Shown one piece after another: positions 1 through 31,852 of a stretch of 36,366 nucleotides of DNA. Position 1 is the first letter of the stretch; the number at the start of each line of letters is the position of its first letter. The notes under the pieces were generated by a model. It saw only the letters and a program-made list of their open reading frames with translations. It was not told where the DNA came from and did no database searches. Origin of the DNA: Gemmatimonadota bacterium (GTDB taxonomy: Bacteria > Gemmatimonadota > Gemmatimonadetes > Gemmatimonadales > GWC2-71-9); the NCBI GenBank assembly GCA_011390645.1, contig JAABRY010000021.1, positions 1 through 36,366 of the forward strand, given 5' to 3'. The position numbers and the translations under genes are program-made.

Positions 1-205
1 CAAGTTCCCCGGCGGCCGCACCCCCCATCCCGTCTGCGACGAGGTAGAGCGCGCCGCGCGAGCCGACCTCGATCTCGACGAGGTTCGCCCCCCGCACCAC
101 CTGATCAGTGGTGAGGTCCGCCACGAGGAACGTGTCCTCGTTGTGCTCACGCGACTGTCCGCGGTCGGTGAGGGCGTAGCCGGAGGCGCGTGTGGAAGAC
201 GTGAT
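1..205 (-). CDS. PP2C-family serine/threonine protein phosphatase, N-terminal fragment
   Basis: Minus-strand reading frame that continues beyond the left edge. It shows the two N-terminal PP2C signatures: TDRGQSREHNED (motif 1, whose Asp and Glu bind metal) and LYLVADGMGGAAAGE (motif 2, DGMGG). These enzymes are soluble Mn/Mg-dependent phosphatases that usually reverse Hanks-type Ser/Thr kinases (PrpC/Stp family). Only about 68 residues are visible. The start is unresolved. An in-frame stop lies at 277-275, and between it and the conserved Gly-Tyr there is no ATG, GTG or TTG, so the coordinate given is an in-frame ATC (205-203). Either a rare start codon or a base error near the start is possible. 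A good promoter lies just upstream on the same strand, and the gene diverges from the GWxTD operon. Confidence 0.8.
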   Translation of the reverse strand, partial: MTSSTRASGYALTDRGQSREHNEDTFLVADLTTDQVVRGANLVEIEVGSRGALYLVADGMGGAAAGEL

Positions 206-7126: not shown

Positions 7127-7168
7127 TGTGGAAAAAGTGTCTATGTGGCTGATTTGTGCTGTGGATTC
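7127..7168 (+). promoter_or_regulatory. DnaA-box-like sites upstream of nrdJ
   Basis: TGTGGAAAA at 7127-7135 is the reverse complement of TTTTCCACA, one base from the consensus DnaA box TTATCCACA. TGTGGATTC at 7160-7168 is a second, weaker match. They lie 40-80 bp upstream of the nrdJ -35 element. The first is identical to the 9-mers clustered at 29982-30328. DnaA control of nrd genes is known in Escherichia coli; its application here is inference. Confidence 0.4.
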
Positions 7169-7203
7169 TTCATCGGTGCGCCCCATCTGACATTTTTCCC
7201 CTG

Positions 7204-7232
7204 TTGCTCCCTCCCGCTGCTGGCCGTAGCTT
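7204..7232 (+). promoter_or_regulatory. Sigma-70-type promoter of nrdJ
   Basis: TTGCTC (7204-7209), 17-bp spacer, TAGCTT (7227-7232). Predicted start is near 7239, leaving a leader of about 97 nt before the ATG at 7336. I see no cobalamin riboswitch signature and no NrdR-box pair in this leader. Confidence 0.6.
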
Positions 7233-7335
7233 GCTCTCCCTTGGTTACGCCCCCGTCGCTCCTTTGGTGCGGACCGACCCGGGGCTCCACTGCAGCAGAC
7301 GTTGCTCACACTTTCGAGACCATTCGCGAGGTTTC

Positions 7336-9864
7336 ATGGATTCGTCCCCGACGCGGGGCGCAGTTGATCTGTCGCCCAACGCCAAGACCGTGCTCGAAAA
7401 GCGCTACCTCCTCAAGGACGATACCGGCCAGCCCGCCGAGTACGCGGAGGATCTTTTCTGGCGAGTTGCCACCACCATCGCCGCCCCCGATGCGAGCTAT
7501 GGGGCCTCCCCGGGCGCGGTCGGGGCGCTCGCCGAGGCGTTCTACGACGTCATGGCGAAGCGGCTGTTCATGCCGAACTCGCCCACGCTGATGAACGCCG
7601 GCCGCCCGCTGGGGCAGCTGTCGGCGTGCTTCGTGCTCCCGGTGGATGACACCCTCTCCAACGGGCAGTCGGGGATCTACGACACCCTGCGGGCGATGGC
7701 GCTCGTCCATCAATCAGGGGGGGGCACCGGCTTCTCCTTCTCGCGCTTGCGGTCGAAGAACGACATCGTCCGCTCCACCATGGGCGTGGCCAGCGGCCCG
7801 ATCTCGTTCATGTCGCTGTACGACGCCTCGACGGACGTCGTCAAGCAGGGCGGTACGCGCCGCGGCGCGAACATGGGGATCCTCCGGGTGGACCATCCGG
7901 ACATCCTCGACTTCATCGCCTGCAAGGACGACACGACCAAGATCACGAACTTCAACATCTCGGTCGGCGTCACCGACGCCTTCATGGCATCGCTCGCGGC
8001 GGGGGAGTCGTACGATCTGATCGACCCGCGCAACCATCGTGTGGTCGGGCAGCTCGACGCCCGCGAGGTCTGGCAGAAGATCATCCATGGCGCCTGGAAG
8101 ACCGGCGAACCAGGCATCTTCTTCATCGATCGCGCCAACCATTTCAATCCGGTACCGCACCTGGGCGCGTACGAGGCGACCAATCCCTGCGGCGAGCAGC
8201 CGTTGCTTGCCTACGACGTCTGCAACCTCGGCTCGATCAACCTCGGGCTGTTCGTCAAGGACGGGCAGATCGATTGGGATCATCTCCGGCAGGTGGTGCA
8301 CCTCACCACGCACTTCCTCGAGAACGTGATCGACGCGAACCACTATCCGCTCAAGGACATCACCGACCTCGCGCAGCGGATCCGCCGCATCGGGCTCGGG
8401 GTGATGGGGCTGGCGGATCTGCTCATCAAGCTTGGCATCCCCTACGATTCCGACGAAGCCGTCAATCTCGGTCGCGAACTCCAGAAGTTCGTCGACGAGG
8501 AGGCCAAGATCGAGTCGGAACGCCTGGCCACGATCCGTGGCGTCTTCCCTGAGTGGGAGCGCAGCATCTGGGGGCCGGATGCGACCTGTGCCCGCGATGC
8601 CAACGGCGAGCGCATTCGTCCGATGCGCAAGCTGCGCAATTGCAACGTCACCACCGTGGCGCCGACCGGCACGATCTCGATCATTGCCAGCTGCTCCTCG
8701 GGCATCGAGCCGCTCTTCGCCGTGGCCTTCATGCGCAACCAGGCCGGCGTGCTGATGCCCGACGTGAACGACGAGTTCGTCGCGATCGCCAAGCGCGAGG
8801 GGTGGTACAGCGAAGAGCTGATGCGCACCATCGCCGAGCAGGGCCACATCAACCTCGAGGGCGTGCCGGCGAAGTGGCAGCGGGTCTTCGTGACCGCAAA
8901 TCATATCGCGCCGGAATACCACATCCGGATGCAGGCCGCTTTCCAGGAGTACAACGACTCCGCGATCAGCAAGACCTGCAACTTCGCCAATGATGCCACC
9001 GAGGCGTACGTCGAGCAGATCTACATGATGGCCTACGAGCTCGGCTGCAAGGGTGTCACGGTGTATCGTGACGGCTCGCGCGACTTCCAGGTGCTCTCGA
9101 CCGGCTCCACCGCCAAGAAGGTGGCGGAAGACGCCACGAAGTCCGGGCGGTCCGAGGCACGCGCCGACCTCAACTTTTCGCAGGCGGCCGAGTCGGCCGA
9201 GACGCTCGAGGATGCGCGGATGATCGCGGCCGACGCCGCCGGCGAGCTCGCCGAGGCACAGGCCGAAATCGCCCGGTTGCGGCAGGTCGTCCACGAGCTC
9301 GAGAGCGAGAACCTGCAGCGGCGCCAGAAGCGTTCGCGTCCGGAACTGCTGCGCGGCGCGACTCGGCGCCTGCAGACCCCGCTGGGGGATCTGTACGTCA
9401 CGATCACCGAGGACGAGAAGGGCCAGCCGTTCGAGGTCTTCATGTCCCTCGGCAAGGCCGGCGGAGCGCTCATGGCCGATGTCGAGGCGATCGGCCGCCT
9501 CGTCTCGCTCGCGCTGCGCTCCGGGATTCCGATGAAGGAGGTCTACCGCCAGTTGCGCGGGATTTCCTCCGATCGTGCCATCGGTCTGGGGGCCAACAAG
9601 GTGCTTTCCGTCCCGGATGCGGTCGGCATTGCCCTCGAGCGCTACATGGCGGATCGCCAGGGGATCCAGCAGGACCTGCTCACGACCACGGCCGAACAGC
9701 CCGTGCCGACCATGCCGGTCCCGGTGACGCAGCAGGACCAGCAGATGATGATGGGGGGCATGCATGAGACCCTCACCGGCGCCTGCCCGGACTGCGGCTC
9801 GCAGCTCGAATACGCCGAGGGATGCATGAAGTGTCATGTCTGCGGCTTCAGCGAGTGCGGCTGA
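7336..9864 (+). CDS. nrdJ: Adenosylcobalamin-dependent (class II) ribonucleoside-diphosphate reductase
   Basis: 842 residues. It reduces ribonucleotides to deoxyribonucleotides using a B12-generated thiyl radical, independent of oxygen. The active-site loop NPCGEQPLL gives Asn283, the expected thiyl Cys285 and Glu287. Cys98 and Cys296 match the redox pair, with the family spacing of 11 residues between the two downstream cysteines. The phosphate loop PTGTISIIASCSSGIEP is intact. The C-terminal part has a short coiled coil (about 620-665), a TSCPD-like domain (LQTPLGDLYVTITED onward) and a terminal cysteine-rich ribbon (CPDCGS, CMKCHVCGFSECG) expected to shuttle electrons. Start ATG 7336 follows GAGG. 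An open frame continues upstream but lacks similarity. A G8 run is at 7717-7724. Transcribed from its own promoter. Confidence 0.95.
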   Translation: MDSSPTRGAVDLSPNAKTVLEKRYLLKDDTGQPAEYAEDLFWRVATTIAAPDASYGASPGAVGALAEAFYDVMAKRLFMPNSPTLMNAGRPLGQLSACFVLPVDDTLSNGQSGIYDTLRAMALVHQSGGGTGFSFSRLRSKNDIVRSTMGVASGPISFMSLYDASTDVVKQGGTRRGANMGILRVDHPDILDFIACKDDTTKITNFNISVGVTDAFMASLAAGESYDLIDPRNHRVVGQLDAREVWQKIIHGAWKTGEPGIFFIDRANHFNPVPHLGAYEATNPCGEQPLLAYDVCNLGSINLGLFVKDGQIDWDHLRQVVHLTTHFLENVIDANHYPLKDITDLAQRIRRIGLGVMGLADLLIKLGIPYDSDEAVNLGRELQKFVDEEAKIESERLATIRGVFPEWERSIWGPDATCARDANGERIRPMRKLRNCNVTTVAPTGTISIIASCSSGIEPLFAVAFMRNQAGVLMPDVNDEFVAIAKREGWYSEELMRTIAEQGHINLEGVPAKWQRVFVTANHIAPEYHIRMQAAFQEYNDSAISKTCNFANDATEAYVEQIYMMAYELGCKGVTVYRDGSRDFQVLSTGSTAKKVAEDATKSGRSEARADLNFSQAAESAETLEDARMIAADAAGELAEAQAEIARLRQVVHELESENLQRRQKRSRPELLRGATRRLQTPLGDLYVTITEDEKGQPFEVFMSLGKAGGALMADVEAIGRLVSLALRSGIPMKEVYRQLRGISSDRAIGLGANKVLSVPDAVGIALERYMADRQGIQQDLLTTTAEQPVPTMPVPVTQQDQQMMMGGMHETLTGACPDCGSQLEYAEGCMKCHVCGFSECG

Positions 9865-26884: not shown

Positions 26885-28330
26885 TTAAAGTGTCTCGACC
26901 TTGAGCAGGTTGGTAGTCCCCGGCACATCGAACGGCGCCCCGGCAGTCACCACCACGCGGTCGCCGGGCACCCCGATGCCACGCGCGAGGAGTTCGGCGC
27001 GCGCCACCTCCATCATCGGGTCGTAGTTCTTGATGTGTGGAATCATCACCGGCACGACCCCCCAGGAGAGGGCCAGTTGCCGGAAGGTCTCCGGTTCCGG
27101 GGTGAAGGCGAAGATCGGCACCCGCGGCCGATAACTCGACACCGTGCGCGCCGTGAAGCCACTCGAGGTGAAGCAGATGATCGCGCGGGCAGCGAGCATG
27201 TCGGAGGCGGTGCTCACGGCCACCGCGATCGCCTCCTCGGTCGGGATGATGGTGTCGGCCGAGAGGTTCGCATGGGCGAGCGGGACCTGCCAGCGGCGGC
27301 GATCCTTGTCGACGCCGTGCAACCGCACCGACTCGACCTCACGAGCGATCCGATCCATCGCCATTACGGACTCCAGCGGATACTCACCGATCGCTGTCTC
27401 CCCGGAGAGCATCACCGCGTCAGTGCCATCCAGAATCGCATTGGCCACGTCCGATGCCTCCGCGCGCGTGGGCCGCGGATTGGTGATCATCGACTCGAGC
27501 ATCTGTGTCGCCGTGATCACCGGCTTGCCCCGACGATTGGCGGCCTGGATCAACCGCTTCTGCACCAGCGGCACCTGCTCGAACGGCAGCTCGACGCCGA
27601 GATCGCCACGCGCGACCATGACCGCGTCGGTCGCCTCGAGAATCTCGTCGAGGTTCTGCAGGGCGGTGTCCTTCTCGATCTTGGCGACGAGTCGCGTCGT
27701 CTTCGGGATGATGCGGCGCACGGCGTGCAGGTCCTCCGCGCGTCGCACGAACGAGACGCCGATATAGGCGACGCCGAGCGCCGTGGCGCGGAGTACTTCG
27801 TCACGGTCGTCGTCGGTCATGGCCGGGGCGCTCACATCGGCGCCGGGCAGGTTCATCCCCTTGTTCGGCTTGAGGAGACCGCCATAGCGGACGCGTCCTT
27901 CGACCCGATCACCCTGCACGGCCACTACCTCGACCGAGAGCAGACCATCATCGAGGAGGATGAACGATCCGACGGTCACGTCACGAGCGAGCTCCGGGTA
28001 CGTCGTGGGAATGTCGCCGTCCCGCTCCGTGCCTTCGGGGACGAAGGTGACCAACTCGCCGGGCGTGAGGGTGATGGCTTCGGGCAACTTGCCGACACGA
28101 ATGCGCGGACCATGCAGGTCCACCAGAATGCCGATCGCGTGACCGCGCTCACTGCGCACCTTCTGGATGCGGCGAATCCATTCGGTGCGGATCTCCGGTG
28201 TCCCATGCGACGCGTTGATGCGAACGATGTTCACGCCCCCGTCGAACATCGCATGCATCTGCGCTTCTGATTCCCATGCTGGGCCGAGCGTGGCGACAAC
28301 CTTGGTACGGCGGATCTGGTCTCCAGACAT
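26885..28330 (-). CDS. pyk: Pyruvate kinase
   Basis: 481 residues from ATG 28330 (GTG 28333 is directly before it). Transfers phosphate from phosphoenolpyruvate to ADP. N-terminal RTKVVATLGPA and VNIVRINASHG, the metal- and substrate-binding stretch MVARGDLGVELPFEQVPLVQK, and TATQMLESMITNPRPTRAEASDVANAILDGTDAVMLSGETAIGEYP are all classic. The C-terminal domain (RAIICFTSSGFTARTVSSYRPRVPIFAFTPE) is present; the length is that of the standard bacterial enzyme. The start overlaps the amidohydrolase stop as TGATG. It sits in an operon with pgi and opposite a class II aldolase. Confidence 0.95.
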   Translation of the reverse strand: MSGDQIRRTKVVATLGPAWESEAQMHAMFDGGVNIVRINASHGTPEIRTEWIRRIQKVRSERGHAIGILVDLHGPRIRVGKLPEAITLTPGELVTFVPEGTERDGDIPTTYPELARDVTVGSFILLDDGLLSVEVVAVQGDRVEGRVRYGGLLKPNKGMNLPGADVSAPAMTDDDRDEVLRATALGVAYIGVSFVRRAEDLHAVRRIIPKTTRLVAKIEKDTALQNLDEILEATDAVMVARGDLGVELPFEQVPLVQKRLIQAANRRGKPVITATQMLESMITNPRPTRAEASDVANAILDGTDAVMLSGETAIGEYPLESVMAMDRIAREVESVRLHGVDKDRRRWQVPLAHANLSADTIIPTEEAIAVAVSTASDMLAARAIICFTSSGFTARTVSSYRPRVPIFAFTPEPETFRQLALSWGVVPVMIPHIKNYDPMMEVARAELLARGIGVPGDRVVVTAGAPFDVPGTTNLLKVETL

Positions 28331-29904
28331 CACGACAAATCACTCCAGACGATGCGGCCACCCACCACGGTCAGGCGGGGTCGGGCGGCCAGGACGGCGT
28401 GGGCATCACCACGCTCTGCGAGCGGGTCGATCTCCCATGCCACGAAATCGGCGTCGAAACCGGGGGCCAGACGACCGCGATGTGCGGCCGTCCCCTCGGC
28501 GATTGCCGGGGCAATAGTATAGGCGCTGAGCGCTTCGTCAAATGTCAGGCTCTCACCACCATACCACCCACCAACCGGACGGCCATCGAGACCCGTCCGG
28601 GCCATCGCCGCGAACAACCCGTGGCGAGGGTCCGCGGCAGCCACCGGAACATCGCTCCCGAAGGCCACAACCGCGCCACGCGCCCGCAACGATCTGAAAG
28701 CATAGGCCCCGGCACTCCGCGCCCCCCAGTGCCGTTCCGCGAGGGGGATGTCGACCAACAGATGGGCCGGTTGCATCGAGGCGACGATCCCCGCACGGCC
28801 CGCCCGATCGAGGTCGTCGGGGTGCACGCACTGCAGGTGTTCGATCCGGTGCGGGATGGCGAGGCGGGGCAACGGCTCCATCAGGTCGAAGGCGCGCCGT
28901 ACGGCGGCGTCGCCAATGGCGTGCACGGTGAGGGCAATCCCAGCGTCTACCGCACGACGCATCACGACTGCTGTCTCCTCTGCGGTGGCCAACGGCATCC
29001 CACGGTCTCGACTGCCTGCGTACGGCTCGAGCATCCAGGCGGTGCGGGAGCCGAGCGAGCCGTCCAGGAAGAGCTTGACGCCACCGTGGCGGAGCAGGCC
29101 TGCCCCCGTCCCGGAGCGGACACCAGCGGCGATCAACTCAGGCAGCATGGCCACGGGAGGGTGGGCGAGGACCCGAATCGTGAGGCCTCCATCGGAATTC
29201 ATCGCCTCCAGAATCGCGCGAGAGTGGCGATCGCCCACGTCGTGTATACCTGTGAGCCCAAGGGCGTTGGCGCGGCGCTGGGCGGCTTCCAGGGCCGTCC
29301 TGAGCCGGTGGGGCTCCGGAACCGGCAACGAGGCGGCCGCCATCGCGACCGCGAATTCGAGCAGCACCCCGGTCGGCGCTCCGGAGGCGTCGCGCACGAT
29401 CCGGCCGCCCGGTGGGTCCGGGGTTGCTGCGGTGATCCCGCAGCGGTCAAGCGCTGCCGAATTGAGCCACGCGGCGTGGACGTCAAGGGAATCGAGCCAG
29501 ACGGGGATTGTCGGGTGGAGGTCGTCGAGCATCCGCCGATCAGGGGGAGCATCCCAGTCGTTGTCGTCCCACCCCTGACCCTGAATCCAGCCGTCGTCGA
29601 CCTCGCCGGTTGCGATCGCCGCGAGTGCCTCAGGGCGACTCAGGCCGGCCAGATGGACTCGCTGGGTACCCAAGGCCCACATCCCGAAGTGGGTGTGGGC
29701 ATCGACCAGCCCGGGGGTGACAAGGAGGTCGGGGAGGTCGAGGTGAGGGGCACCGGCGGGCAGTGGCCGGGACATCTCCGAAGGCGATCCGACGGCCACG
29801 ATTCGACCGTCTTCCCACCGGAGCGACGACCCCTCGCTCTGGTCGGACAGGGTCACGATGCGACGAGCGCGGAGCACTCCTGAGAGCGAGGCGAGGGGAG
29901 ACAC
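28330..29904 (-). CDS. Amidohydrolase family 3 protein (YtcJ-like)
   Basis: 524 residues from GTG 29904. The open frame runs about 170 codons further up into the intergenic region, but that part has no similarity. Metal-dependent TIM-barrel hydrolase: VDAHTHFG (two metal His), later HAIGDAAVRRAFD, HRIEHLQCVHPDD and the catalytic-type Asp in FGSDVPVAAADPRHG. YtcJ-like enzymes hydrolyse amide or related bonds of uncertain natural substrates. A putative -10 (TACATT, 29916-29911) is 6 nt before the start and there is no Shine-Dalgarno sequence, suggesting a leaderless message. First gene of the amidohydrolase, pyk, MBL, pgi operon. GTG 29880 is an alternative start. Confidence 0.85.
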   Translation of the reverse strand: MSPLASLSGVLRARRIVTLSDQSEGSSLRWEDGRIVAVGSPSEMSRPLPAGAPHLDLPDLLVTPGLVDAHTHFGMWALGTQRVHLAGLSRPEALAAIATGEVDDGWIQGQGWDDNDWDAPPDRRMLDDLHPTIPVWLDSLDVHAAWLNSAALDRCGITAATPDPPGGRIVRDASGAPTGVLLEFAVAMAAASLPVPEPHRLRTALEAAQRRANALGLTGIHDVGDRHSRAILEAMNSDGGLTIRVLAHPPVAMLPELIAAGVRSGTGAGLLRHGGVKLFLDGSLGSRTAWMLEPYAGSRDRGMPLATAEETAVVMRRAVDAGIALTVHAIGDAAVRRAFDLMEPLPRLAIPHRIEHLQCVHPDDLDRAGRAGIVASMQPAHLLVDIPLAERHWGARSAGAYAFRSLRARGAVVAFGSDVPVAAADPRHGLFAAMARTGLDGRPVGGWYGGESLTFDEALSAYTIAPAIAEGTAAHRGRLAPGFDADFVAWEIDPLAERGDAHAVLAARPRLTVVGGRIVWSDLS

Positions 29905-29910
29905 GCGCGA

Positions 29911-29981: not shown

Positions 29982-30328
29982 TGTGGGGAATTGCTTTTCC
30001 ACATCGGGACCTCGTTCCACGCCAATGGAAATGGGGGCAGGGAGGTGAGCAGGTACCCACCTGACGACATCTCTCCCACATCGGTTCTCGAGGCAGTGAT
30101 CGGCCGAAAAGGAGTTGGCAACAGATGTGGAAAGTGGAAGTTTCCCACACCGATTTCCGGGGATAATTCGTGGAATAGGGCCCCAACTCGTTGTACTGAT
30201 GGAGCTTCTGAATCCACCGAGTTGTCAACGTTATCACGTTTTGGTAACTCTTTCTTCCACAACGTCTTGGGGGGGGCAGTTCATGTGGAAAATCAACAAA
30301 GCGCCAGTGTCGCTGGGGCCGTGGAAAG
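29982..30328. other. Low-G+C intergenic region with a cluster of DnaA-box-like 9-mers
   Basis: Between the divergent operons. Matches to TTTTCCACA on both strands: TGTGGGGAA (29982), TTTTCCACA (29995), TCTCCCACA (30072), TGTGGAAAG (30126), TTTCCCACA (30141), CGTGGAATA (30169), TCTTCCACA (30253), TGTGGAAAA (30284), CGTGGAAAG (30320). Two are exact TTTTCCACA, one base from the consensus DnaA box. By hand count 29941-30300 is about 51% G+C, well below the flanking genes, with AT-rich patches at 30225-30260. It could be an origin, a DnaA-binding locus, or the operator array of a regulator of the glycolytic genes on both sides. No gene seen. Confidence 0.5.
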
Positions 30329-30368: not shown

Positions 30369-30397
30369 TTGCCCCTACCGCAGCGGCTCGGTAGATT
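30369..30397 (+). promoter_or_regulatory. Sigma-70-type promoter of the aldolase operon
   Basis: TTGCCC (30369-30374), 17-bp spacer, TAGATT (30392-30397). Predicted start near 30404, giving a leader of about 30 nt with GGAG before the ATG pair. Confidence 0.65.
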
Positions 30398-30433: not shown

Positions 30434-31852
30434 ATGATGAGCGAGGCGATGGCGCGGGCTGTAACGGGCTTCGGCGGGGCGATTTCGGTCCGTGACGGTC
30501 ATGTGGAAATCTCTGATTCGCGGGGCCTCGAGTCGGCCGCCATGGACGGACTGGTCTGGTCGGCGGTCTTCGGAAATGACGACGAACGTGACGCTGCTCG
30601 CGCAGTGCTCTGGGAGCTGGGTCAGGCGGTCGGCGTGCGTCCGGCGTCGATCCATGACCTCTACCTCGCGCGTGGCCGGGGGGAGTGTGGTGGCTTCACG
30701 GTCCCGGCGATCAACATCCGGATGATGGCCTATGACACCGCCCGGGCAGTCTTCCGCGCGGCCAAGGCAATCGACGCTGGGGCGATCATCATCGAGATCG
30801 CCCGATCCGAGATTGCCTACACCGACCAGCGTCCGGCGGAGTATGTCGCGGTCATGATCGGGGCGGCCCTTCGCGAGGGGTACCGGCAGCCCCTCTTCAT
30901 CCAGGGTGACCACTGCCAGGTGAACCCCAAGAAGTACGCTGCCGATGCGGAGGCCGAGGTCGGTGAGGTCAAGAAGCTGATCGCCGAGGAGGTCGCGGCG
31001 GGCTTCTACAACATCGACGTGGACACCTCGACGTTGGTCGACCTCTCCTTCCCGACCCTCGATGAACAGCAGCGGACCAACTACGAGCGGGCCGCCGAAA
31101 TCACCCGGTTCATCCGCGGCAAGGAGCCCAAGGGCGTGACGGTCTCGGTGGGTGGTGAGATCGGGGAGGTTGGCCACAAGAACAGCACCGTCGAGGAACT
31201 CCACGCCTTCATGCAGGGGTACAACCGGACCTTGGCGGCGAGCGGCGGTGGGGCAGGGCTGAGCAAGATCTCGGTCCAGACCGGGACCTCGCATGGCGGG
31301 GTTGTCCTGCCGGACGGTTCGATCGCCGAGGTAAATCTCGACCTTGAGGCCCTCGAGGCGCTCTCGACCAGCGCCCGCAACGACTACGGGATGGGTGGAG
31401 CGGTCCAGCATGGCGCCTCGACCCTACCGGCCGACGCCTTCGGCAACTTCCCCCGCATCGAGACGGCCGAAATCCACTTGGCGACTAACTTCCAGAATAT
31501 CGTCTGGGATCACCCGAAGCTGCCGGCCGAGCTCAAGGCGCGGGCCTACGAATGGCTAACCACCAATGCGGCCGGTGAGCGCGGGGCCAACGACTCCGAC
31601 GAGCAGTTCATCTACAAGACCCGCAAGAAGGCGATCGGCCCGTTCAAGCGCGAGATGTGGTCGTTGGCGCCTGAGATTCGTCAGGAGATCGGACAGTCGC
31701 TCGAATCGACCTTCGCGTTCCTGTTCGCGCAATTGCAGGTTGGCGGGACGGCCGCGCTGGTCGCCAAGCACATTACTGCCCCGGCCATTCGGTATGGGGC
31801 GCTGGCCACGGTCGGGGTCCTCGCTGAGGACGATCCCGACGCTGGTGAGTAA
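30434..31852 (+). CDS. Class II (zinc) fructose-bisphosphate aldolase family protein
   Basis: 472 residues. ATG 30434 or 30437; GGAG spacing favours the second. Zinc TIM-barrel aldolase signatures: GGFTVPAINIR, QGDHCQVNPKKY (catalytic Asp and zinc His), VDVDTST-like FYNIDVDTSTL, GGEIGEVGHKNS, and the phosphate/zinc loop VQTGTSHGG. Cleaves fructose-1,6-bisphosphate, or tagatose-bisphosphate in related enzymes. It is longer than the usual 300-360 residues because of an N-terminal helical part and a C-terminal extension (FKREMWSLAPEIRQEIGQS onward). Next to pyk and pgi across the divergent region, which supports a glycolytic role. First gene of an operon with YtxH and YihY proteins. Confidence 0.88.
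   Translation: MMSEAMARAVTGFGGAISVRDGHVEISDSRGLESAAMDGLVWSAVFGNDDERDAARAVLWELGQAVGVRPASIHDLYLARGRGECGGFTVPAINIRMMAYDTARAVFRAAKAIDAGAIIIEIARSEIAYTDQRPAEYVAVMIGAALREGYRQPLFIQGDHCQVNPKKYAADAEAEVGEVKKLIAEEVAAGFYNIDVDTSTLVDLSFPTLDEQQRTNYERAAEITRFIRGKEPKGVTVSVGGEIGEVGHKNSTVEELHAFMQGYNRTLAASGGGAGLSKISVQTGTSHGGVVLPDGSIAEVNLDLEALEALSTSARNDYGMGGAVQHGASTLPADAFGNFPRIETAEIHLATNFQNIVWDHPKLPAELKARAYEWLTTNAAGERGANDSDEQFIYKTRKKAIGPFKREMWSLAPEIRQEIGQSLESTFAFLFAQLQVGGTAALVAKHITAPAIRYGALATVGVLAEDDPDAGE

What the first reader, a model, noticed from the sequence alone, without database searches (positions are those of the whole stretch)
29982..30328. Cluster of DnaA-box-like 9-mers in a low-G+C divergent region: candidate origin or glycolytic operator array
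About nine matches to TTTTCCACA on both strands within 350 bp, two exact, in a region of about 51% G+C with AT-rich patches. Genes point away on both sides locally. The same divergent region separates pyk/pgi from a class II aldolase, so a regulator of central metabolism is an alternative.
Basis: partly seen in the sequence, partly recalled or inferred. Interest (0 to 1): 0.75.

Follow-up and report, generated by a model that had tools for sequence, protein, structure and literature searches.

The report
DnaA-box array at pyruvate-kinase promoter
A single-copy, precisely spaced array of probable binding sites for the replication initiator DnaA sits in front of the pyruvate-kinase gene in a family of Gemmatimonadota bacteria; it is not the replication origin, and it may tie sugar metabolism to chromosome replication.

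Summary
In detail: nine matches to TTTTCCACA with at most 2 mismatches lie in 29982-30328, and none of 2000 shuffles reached that count. The origin reading is wrong. oriC in this organism is the dnaA-dnaN spacer on another contig: there, 18 relatives carry a DnaA box followed by five DnaA-trios, and two relatives have the GC-skew minimum beside dnaA. Around the array in one of those relatives the skew does not switch.

The array is still under strong constraint. A 181-bp sequence model finds exactly one copy in each of 25 of 102 family genomes. Box order and spacing are fixed (two boxes 143 bp apart in most), the spacers diverge, and there is no RNA covariation. The site is upstream of pyk, or of an amidohydrolase-pyk unit, wherever a neighbour can be read; the aldolase on the other side is often absent. 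Several relatives without the array keep one to three boxes at the same promoter.

The same 9-mer lies in the dnaA promoter of nearly every relative and, in the genus, upstream of ribonucleotide reductase, so DnaA is the likely binder. Best reading: a non-origin DnaA-binding array controlling pyk, possibly also titrating DnaA. A datA/DARS-type role remains open. DnaA binding was not tested.

The parts
29982..29990 (-). box TTCCCCACA, left member of the head-to-head pair on the pyk side
   Evidence: TGTnG conserved in all 13 aligned loci
29995..30003 (+). exact box TTTTCCACA, right member of the pyk-side pair
30072..30080 (+). weak box TCTCCCACA between pair and core
30119..30299 (+). 181-bp core of the array (model R1), one copy per genome
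30126..30134 (-). core box CTTTCCACA (model columns 8-16)
30141..30149 (+). core box TTTCCCACA (model columns 23-31)
30169..30177 (-). weak box TATTCCACG, not conserved in relatives
30222..30230 (+). core box TTGTCAACG (model columns 104-112; relatives mostly TTnTCCACA-like)
30253..30261 (+). core box TCTTCCACA (model columns 135-143)
30284..30292 (-). exact core box TTTTCCACA (model columns 166-174), 143 bp from the box at 30141
30369..30397 (+). candidate aldolase promoter TTGCCC-N17-TAGATT, recurrent at about the same place in most array-bearing relatives
   Evidence: consensus match only
30434..31852 (+). class II ketose-bisphosphate aldolase-like gene
   Evidence: below the curated cut-off
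28330..29907 (-). amidohydrolase, first gene of a probable amidohydrolase-pyk unit
26885..28333 (-). pyruvate kinase (pyk), the gene constantly downstream of the array
7127..7135 (-). exact TTTTCCACA upstream of nrdJ (supporting site for DnaA as the binder)

Best explanation
This is a non-origin, single-copy array of DnaA boxes in the regulatory region of the pyruvate-kinase (amidohydrolase-pyk) transcription unit. DnaA is inferred to bind the pair next to the pyk side and the fixed core of five boxes, assembling a defined nucleoprotein complex that modulates pyk transcription and, where the aldolase lies opposite, possibly that gene too. With 6-9 boxes it would also hold DnaA away from oriC. 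Shown here: the sites, their fixed spacing, one copy per genome, the constant link to pyk, boxes at the pyk promoter in several relatives without the array, the same 9-mer at dnaA and nrdJ, and an oriC elsewhere. Inferred: DnaA binding, the direction of regulation, and any effect on replication timing.
For: Cluster far above chance. Fixed core with divergent spacers: 143 bp between the + and - boxes in most loci. One copy per genome in 25 of 102 family genomes. No base-pair covariation and no Rfam match. pyk or amidohydrolase is the near neighbour in 23 of 25 loci, while the aldolase is replaced by other genes in several genomes. Array-less relatives: TTNTCCACA within 200 bp upstream of pyk at 2500 per Mb against a background of 9.5 per Mb, and a three-box cluster upstream of the amidohydrolase-pyk unit in G050. 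The aldolase upstream region without the array is nearly empty of boxes. TTTTCCACA lies in the dnaA promoter of 18 of 19 relatives and of the own genome, and TTNTCCACA upstream of nrdJ in most of the genus; dnaA and ribonucleotide reductase are classical DnaA-regulated genes (PMC8203912).
Against: No binding or expression data exist. No pyk promoter of sigma-70 type was found by consensus. Many array-less relatives show no box directly upstream of pyk; some have another gene in between. Another regulator reading the same 9-mer at dnaA, nrdJ and pyk is not excluded. A strict 181-bp architecture is more than ordinary promoter control needs, which fits a DnaA-control locus as well.
Confidence: 0.55

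Rival explanations
1. A datA- or DARS-type DnaA control locus: the array changes the nucleotide state or free amount of DnaA, and pyk is only the place where it happens to sit.
For: Strict box order and spacing with divergent spacers, one copy per genome, as described for datA and DARS in E. coli (PMC4585315). Far from oriC: in G076 the array is on another contig and dnaA lies 671 kb from the nearest end of its own contig.
Against: The pyk promoter keeps one to three boxes in several relatives that lack the array, so the link to pyk looks older than the array. Box number and layout of the E. coli elements were not matched; IHF or Fis sites were not tested.
Confidence: 0.27
2. Operator array of a different regulator of central metabolism that happens to read TTTTCCACA.
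For: Location between pyk and aldolase in most loci.
Against: The same 9-mer is in the dnaA promoter of 18 of 19 relatives at a similar place and upstream of nrdJ in the genus; exact sites are very rare genome-wide (3 in G076). Array boxes vary within TTNTCCACA as DnaA boxes do.
Confidence: 0.13
3. The replication origin, a second origin, or a displaced old origin.
For: Many DnaA boxes in a low-G+C divergent intergenic region.
Against: oriC-type unwinding sequence (box, GC-rich spacer, five trios) and skew minimum at dnaA-dnaN. Skew uniform for about 95 kb on both sides of the array in G091 and only a weak local dip in G084. Model R1 does not match the five oriC spacers searched.
Confidence: 0.03

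Closest known systems
DnaA-regulated promoters (dnaA, nrdAB of E. coli; reviewed in PMC8203912)
   Same: DnaA boxes upstream of a transcription unit; the same lineage has the box at dnaA and at a ribonucleotide reductase gene
   Different: Target is pyruvate kinase, not named in that review; 6-9 boxes with fixed spacing over about 300 bp
datA and DARS1/DARS2 of E. coli (PMC4585315)
   Same: Non-origin, single-copy DnaA-box clusters with conserved boxes and spacing
   Different: Other phylum, fixed to the pyk unit, more boxes than the three-box DARS core; nucleotide-exchange or hydrolysis activity unknown
DnaA-box clusters of Bacillus subtilis outside oriC (PMC5295017)
   Same: Box clusters away from oriC that can hold DnaA
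   Different: One cluster per genome here instead of six, with a fixed internal layout
PykA-replication link of B. subtilis (PMC9009071)
   Same: Pyruvate kinase and replication are connected
   Different: There a protein-level link to helicase and polymerase; here a DNA-level link through DnaA boxes at the pyk promoter

Membership tests
Chromosomal replication origin (oriC) | cluster of DnaA boxes | tested here: met
Chromosomal replication origin (oriC) | DnaA-trio unwinding element beside a box | tested here: not met
   five trios in 18 of 20 dnaA-dnaN spacers; no run of four or more around the arrays except one unexamined run near the G056 array
Chromosomal replication origin (oriC) | GC-skew minimum at the site | tested here: not met
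   no switch at the array in G091; minimum near dnaA in G091 and G090
datA / DARS | non-origin single-copy box cluster with conserved spacing | tested here: met
datA / DARS | box layout of the E. coli elements and IHF/Fis sites | not tested
   sequences of the E. coli elements were not compared
datA / DARS | promotes ATP hydrolysis on DnaA or ADP release from DnaA | not testable with these tools
   biochemical assay needed
datA / DARS | conserved distance from oriC | tested here: inconclusive
   array and dnaA on different contigs in the near-complete genomes
DnaA-regulated promoter | DnaA boxes upstream of the same gene across relatives | tested here: met
DnaA-regulated promoter | DnaA binds and changes transcription | not testable with these tools
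   no binding or expression data

The most novel reading that the evidence does not exclude
In this lineage the replication initiator DnaA directly controls pyruvate kinase through a dedicated nucleoprotein array, so that glycolytic flux and replication initiation are coupled at the DNA level, the array acting both as a promoter switch and as a DnaA reservoir.
Probability: 0.35. Interest if true: 0.8.

Novelty: new variant of a known kind. Interest (0 to 1): 0.6.

Why it matters
How bacteria match replication initiation to nutrient supply is an open question, and pyruvate kinase has been implicated in B. subtilis at the protein level (PMC9009071). A conserved DnaA array at the pyk promoter would give a direct, testable DNA-level connection in a little-studied phylum, and would extend non-origin DnaA control loci beyond the few model species. 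In the papers searched, no DnaA-box array at a pyruvate-kinase promoter was found; the held library is not complete.

Tried and rejected
Structured RNA: no Rfam match, five predicted pairs and none compensatory. Origin: rejected by skew and by the dnaA-dnaN spacer. Relation of the array to the oriC spacer: model R1 gave no match in the spacers searched. Aldolase as the regulated gene: its upstream region in array-less loci has almost no boxes. Skew in G076 and G084 was weak and uneven, so it counts for little. The R1 hit in G019 (L090) covers only part of the model and is treated as doubtful. Two papers on B. subtilis DnaA sites (PMC3245932, PMC2533591) and one on its DnaA regulon (PMC5607098) were not held.

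Full report
The window is contig C79 of a draft genome of 2.93 Mb in 295 contigs. Relatives found by the aldolase are labelled Gemmatimonadetes or Gemmatimonadales. The finding lies in an intergenic region between an amidohydrolase (28330-29907, -) and a class II aldolase-like gene (30434-31852, +); pyk follows the amidohydrolase (26885-28333, -), the two genes overlapping by a few bases.

Observation. Two exact, five with at most 1 mismatch and nine with at most 2 mismatches to TTTTCCACA lie in 29982-30328; 0 of 2000 dinucleotide shuffles reached these counts. G+C is 53% against 67% for the window.

Conservation. The same arrangement stands upstream of the aldolase in about a dozen relatives, with a + box and a - box 143 bp apart. 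The alignment is nearly free of gaps over about 180 bp, and the invariant columns fall almost all in box positions. The core holds boxes at model columns 8-16 (-), 23-31 (+), 104-112 (+), 135-143 (+) and 166-174 (-). A second head-to-head pair (29982/29995) lies on the pyk side at a variable distance. RNAalifold finds five pairs and no compensatory change, and Rfam finds nothing, so the elements read as DNA sites. A sequence model of the core finds exactly one match in each of 25 of 102 family genomes, and the same 25 among 288 of the order. One of the 25 (G019) is weak and partial. Three genomes of array-bearing genera without a match (G081, G092, G096) show no pyk or only a piece of it, so the region is probably missing from their assemblies.

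Not the origin. dnaA and dnaN lie together on C197. Their spacer holds GGTCCACATTTCCCAACCCTCTACTACTACGACGATATTC, the layout of the basal unwinding system: DnaA box, spacer, DnaA-trios (PMC8287927). Eighteen relatives, all in array-bearing genera, have exactly five trios there; two more distant ones did not score under the same pattern although a related stretch is visible. Within the stretches read, cumulative skew has its minimum at 36.8 kb with dnaA at 45.5 kb in G091, and at 490 kb with dnaA at 476 kb in G090. In the same G091, skew is negative throughout 110-304 kb with the array at 209.5 kb. G084 shows only a weak local dip at the array, and G076 is flat.

Which gene. Of the 25 model loci, pyk or the amidohydrolase is the near neighbour in 23; the other two are the contig-edge locus of G056 and the doubtful G019. 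The orientation of the array towards pyk is constant where both are read. In G095, G094, G063 and G056 the gene on the other side is not the aldolase but a gene running towards the array. In 24 family genomes without the array, TTNTCCACA occurs 12 times in 4800 bp upstream of pyk, 2500 per Mb against 9.5 per Mb in 1.16 Mb of the relatives' DNA. Eight of these genomes have an exact TTTTCCACA there; three of them, in one genus, share TTTTCCACA-N20-TGTGGATAA. In G050, where the amidohydrolase precedes pyk, a small cluster of boxes lies upstream of that gene. These genomes are related, so the counts are not independent events.

Which protein. An exact TTTTCCACA lies upstream of dnaA in 18 of 19 relatives and in the own genome; in the exception, G052, the script misplaced the gene start, so it is uninformative. 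The frame at 7156-9864 of the window is a vitamin B12-dependent ribonucleotide reductase. The box upstream of it at 7127 recurs as TTNTCCACA, in the same orientation, in six further genomes of the genus. dnaA and ribonucleotide reductase genes are established DnaA targets in E. coli (PMC8203912). Exact sites are rare: 10 in the own genome and 3 in G076. The own DnaA carries the DHST motif typical of the box-binding domain (recognition role from general knowledge). Together this makes DnaA the likely binder; it was not shown.

Mechanism. The last core box lies about 77 bp upstream of a candidate aldolase promoter (TTGCCC-N17-TAGATT, 30369-30397) that recurs in most array-bearing relatives; no pyk-side promoter was recognised. 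I take DnaA to assemble on the array and modulate the pyk unit. Whether it activates or represses, and whether the array also feeds back on DnaA, is open. A locus of the datA/DARS kind, which in E. coli also shows conserved boxes and spacing (PMC4585315), is the main rival.

Literature. Searches for DnaA with pyruvate kinase, or for DnaA regulation of pyk, returned work on the PykA-replication link in B. subtilis and reviews, not an array of this kind. Three B. subtilis papers that bear on this were not held.

Noticed in passing
window 7127-7135 and 7156-9864: Exact DnaA-box 9-mer upstream of a vitamin B12-dependent ribonucleotide reductase gene, conserved in place and orientation in much of the genus.
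   Followed up: yes
L060 6736-6760 (G000 C128); L245 (G084 C4): Two tandem boxes 16 bp apart next to tRNA-Met and tRNA-Val genes, in the own genome and in G084; a possible second small DnaA site.
   Followed up: partly
L058 8919-9150 (G000 C197) and dnaA-dnaN spacers of relatives: A very regular unwinding element, five DnaA-trios after a box and a GC-rich spacer, giving a clear oriC prediction for this family.
   Followed up: yes
window 7127-30300 and the corresponding contigs of G076, G083, G084, G088, G091: nrdJ and the pyk array lie on the same contig within about 15-55 kb of each other in several genomes.
   Followed up: no
L084, L085, L086, L087: In genomes where the aldolase is absent, a family of about 280-residue predicted secreted proteins lies on that side of the array.
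   Followed up: no
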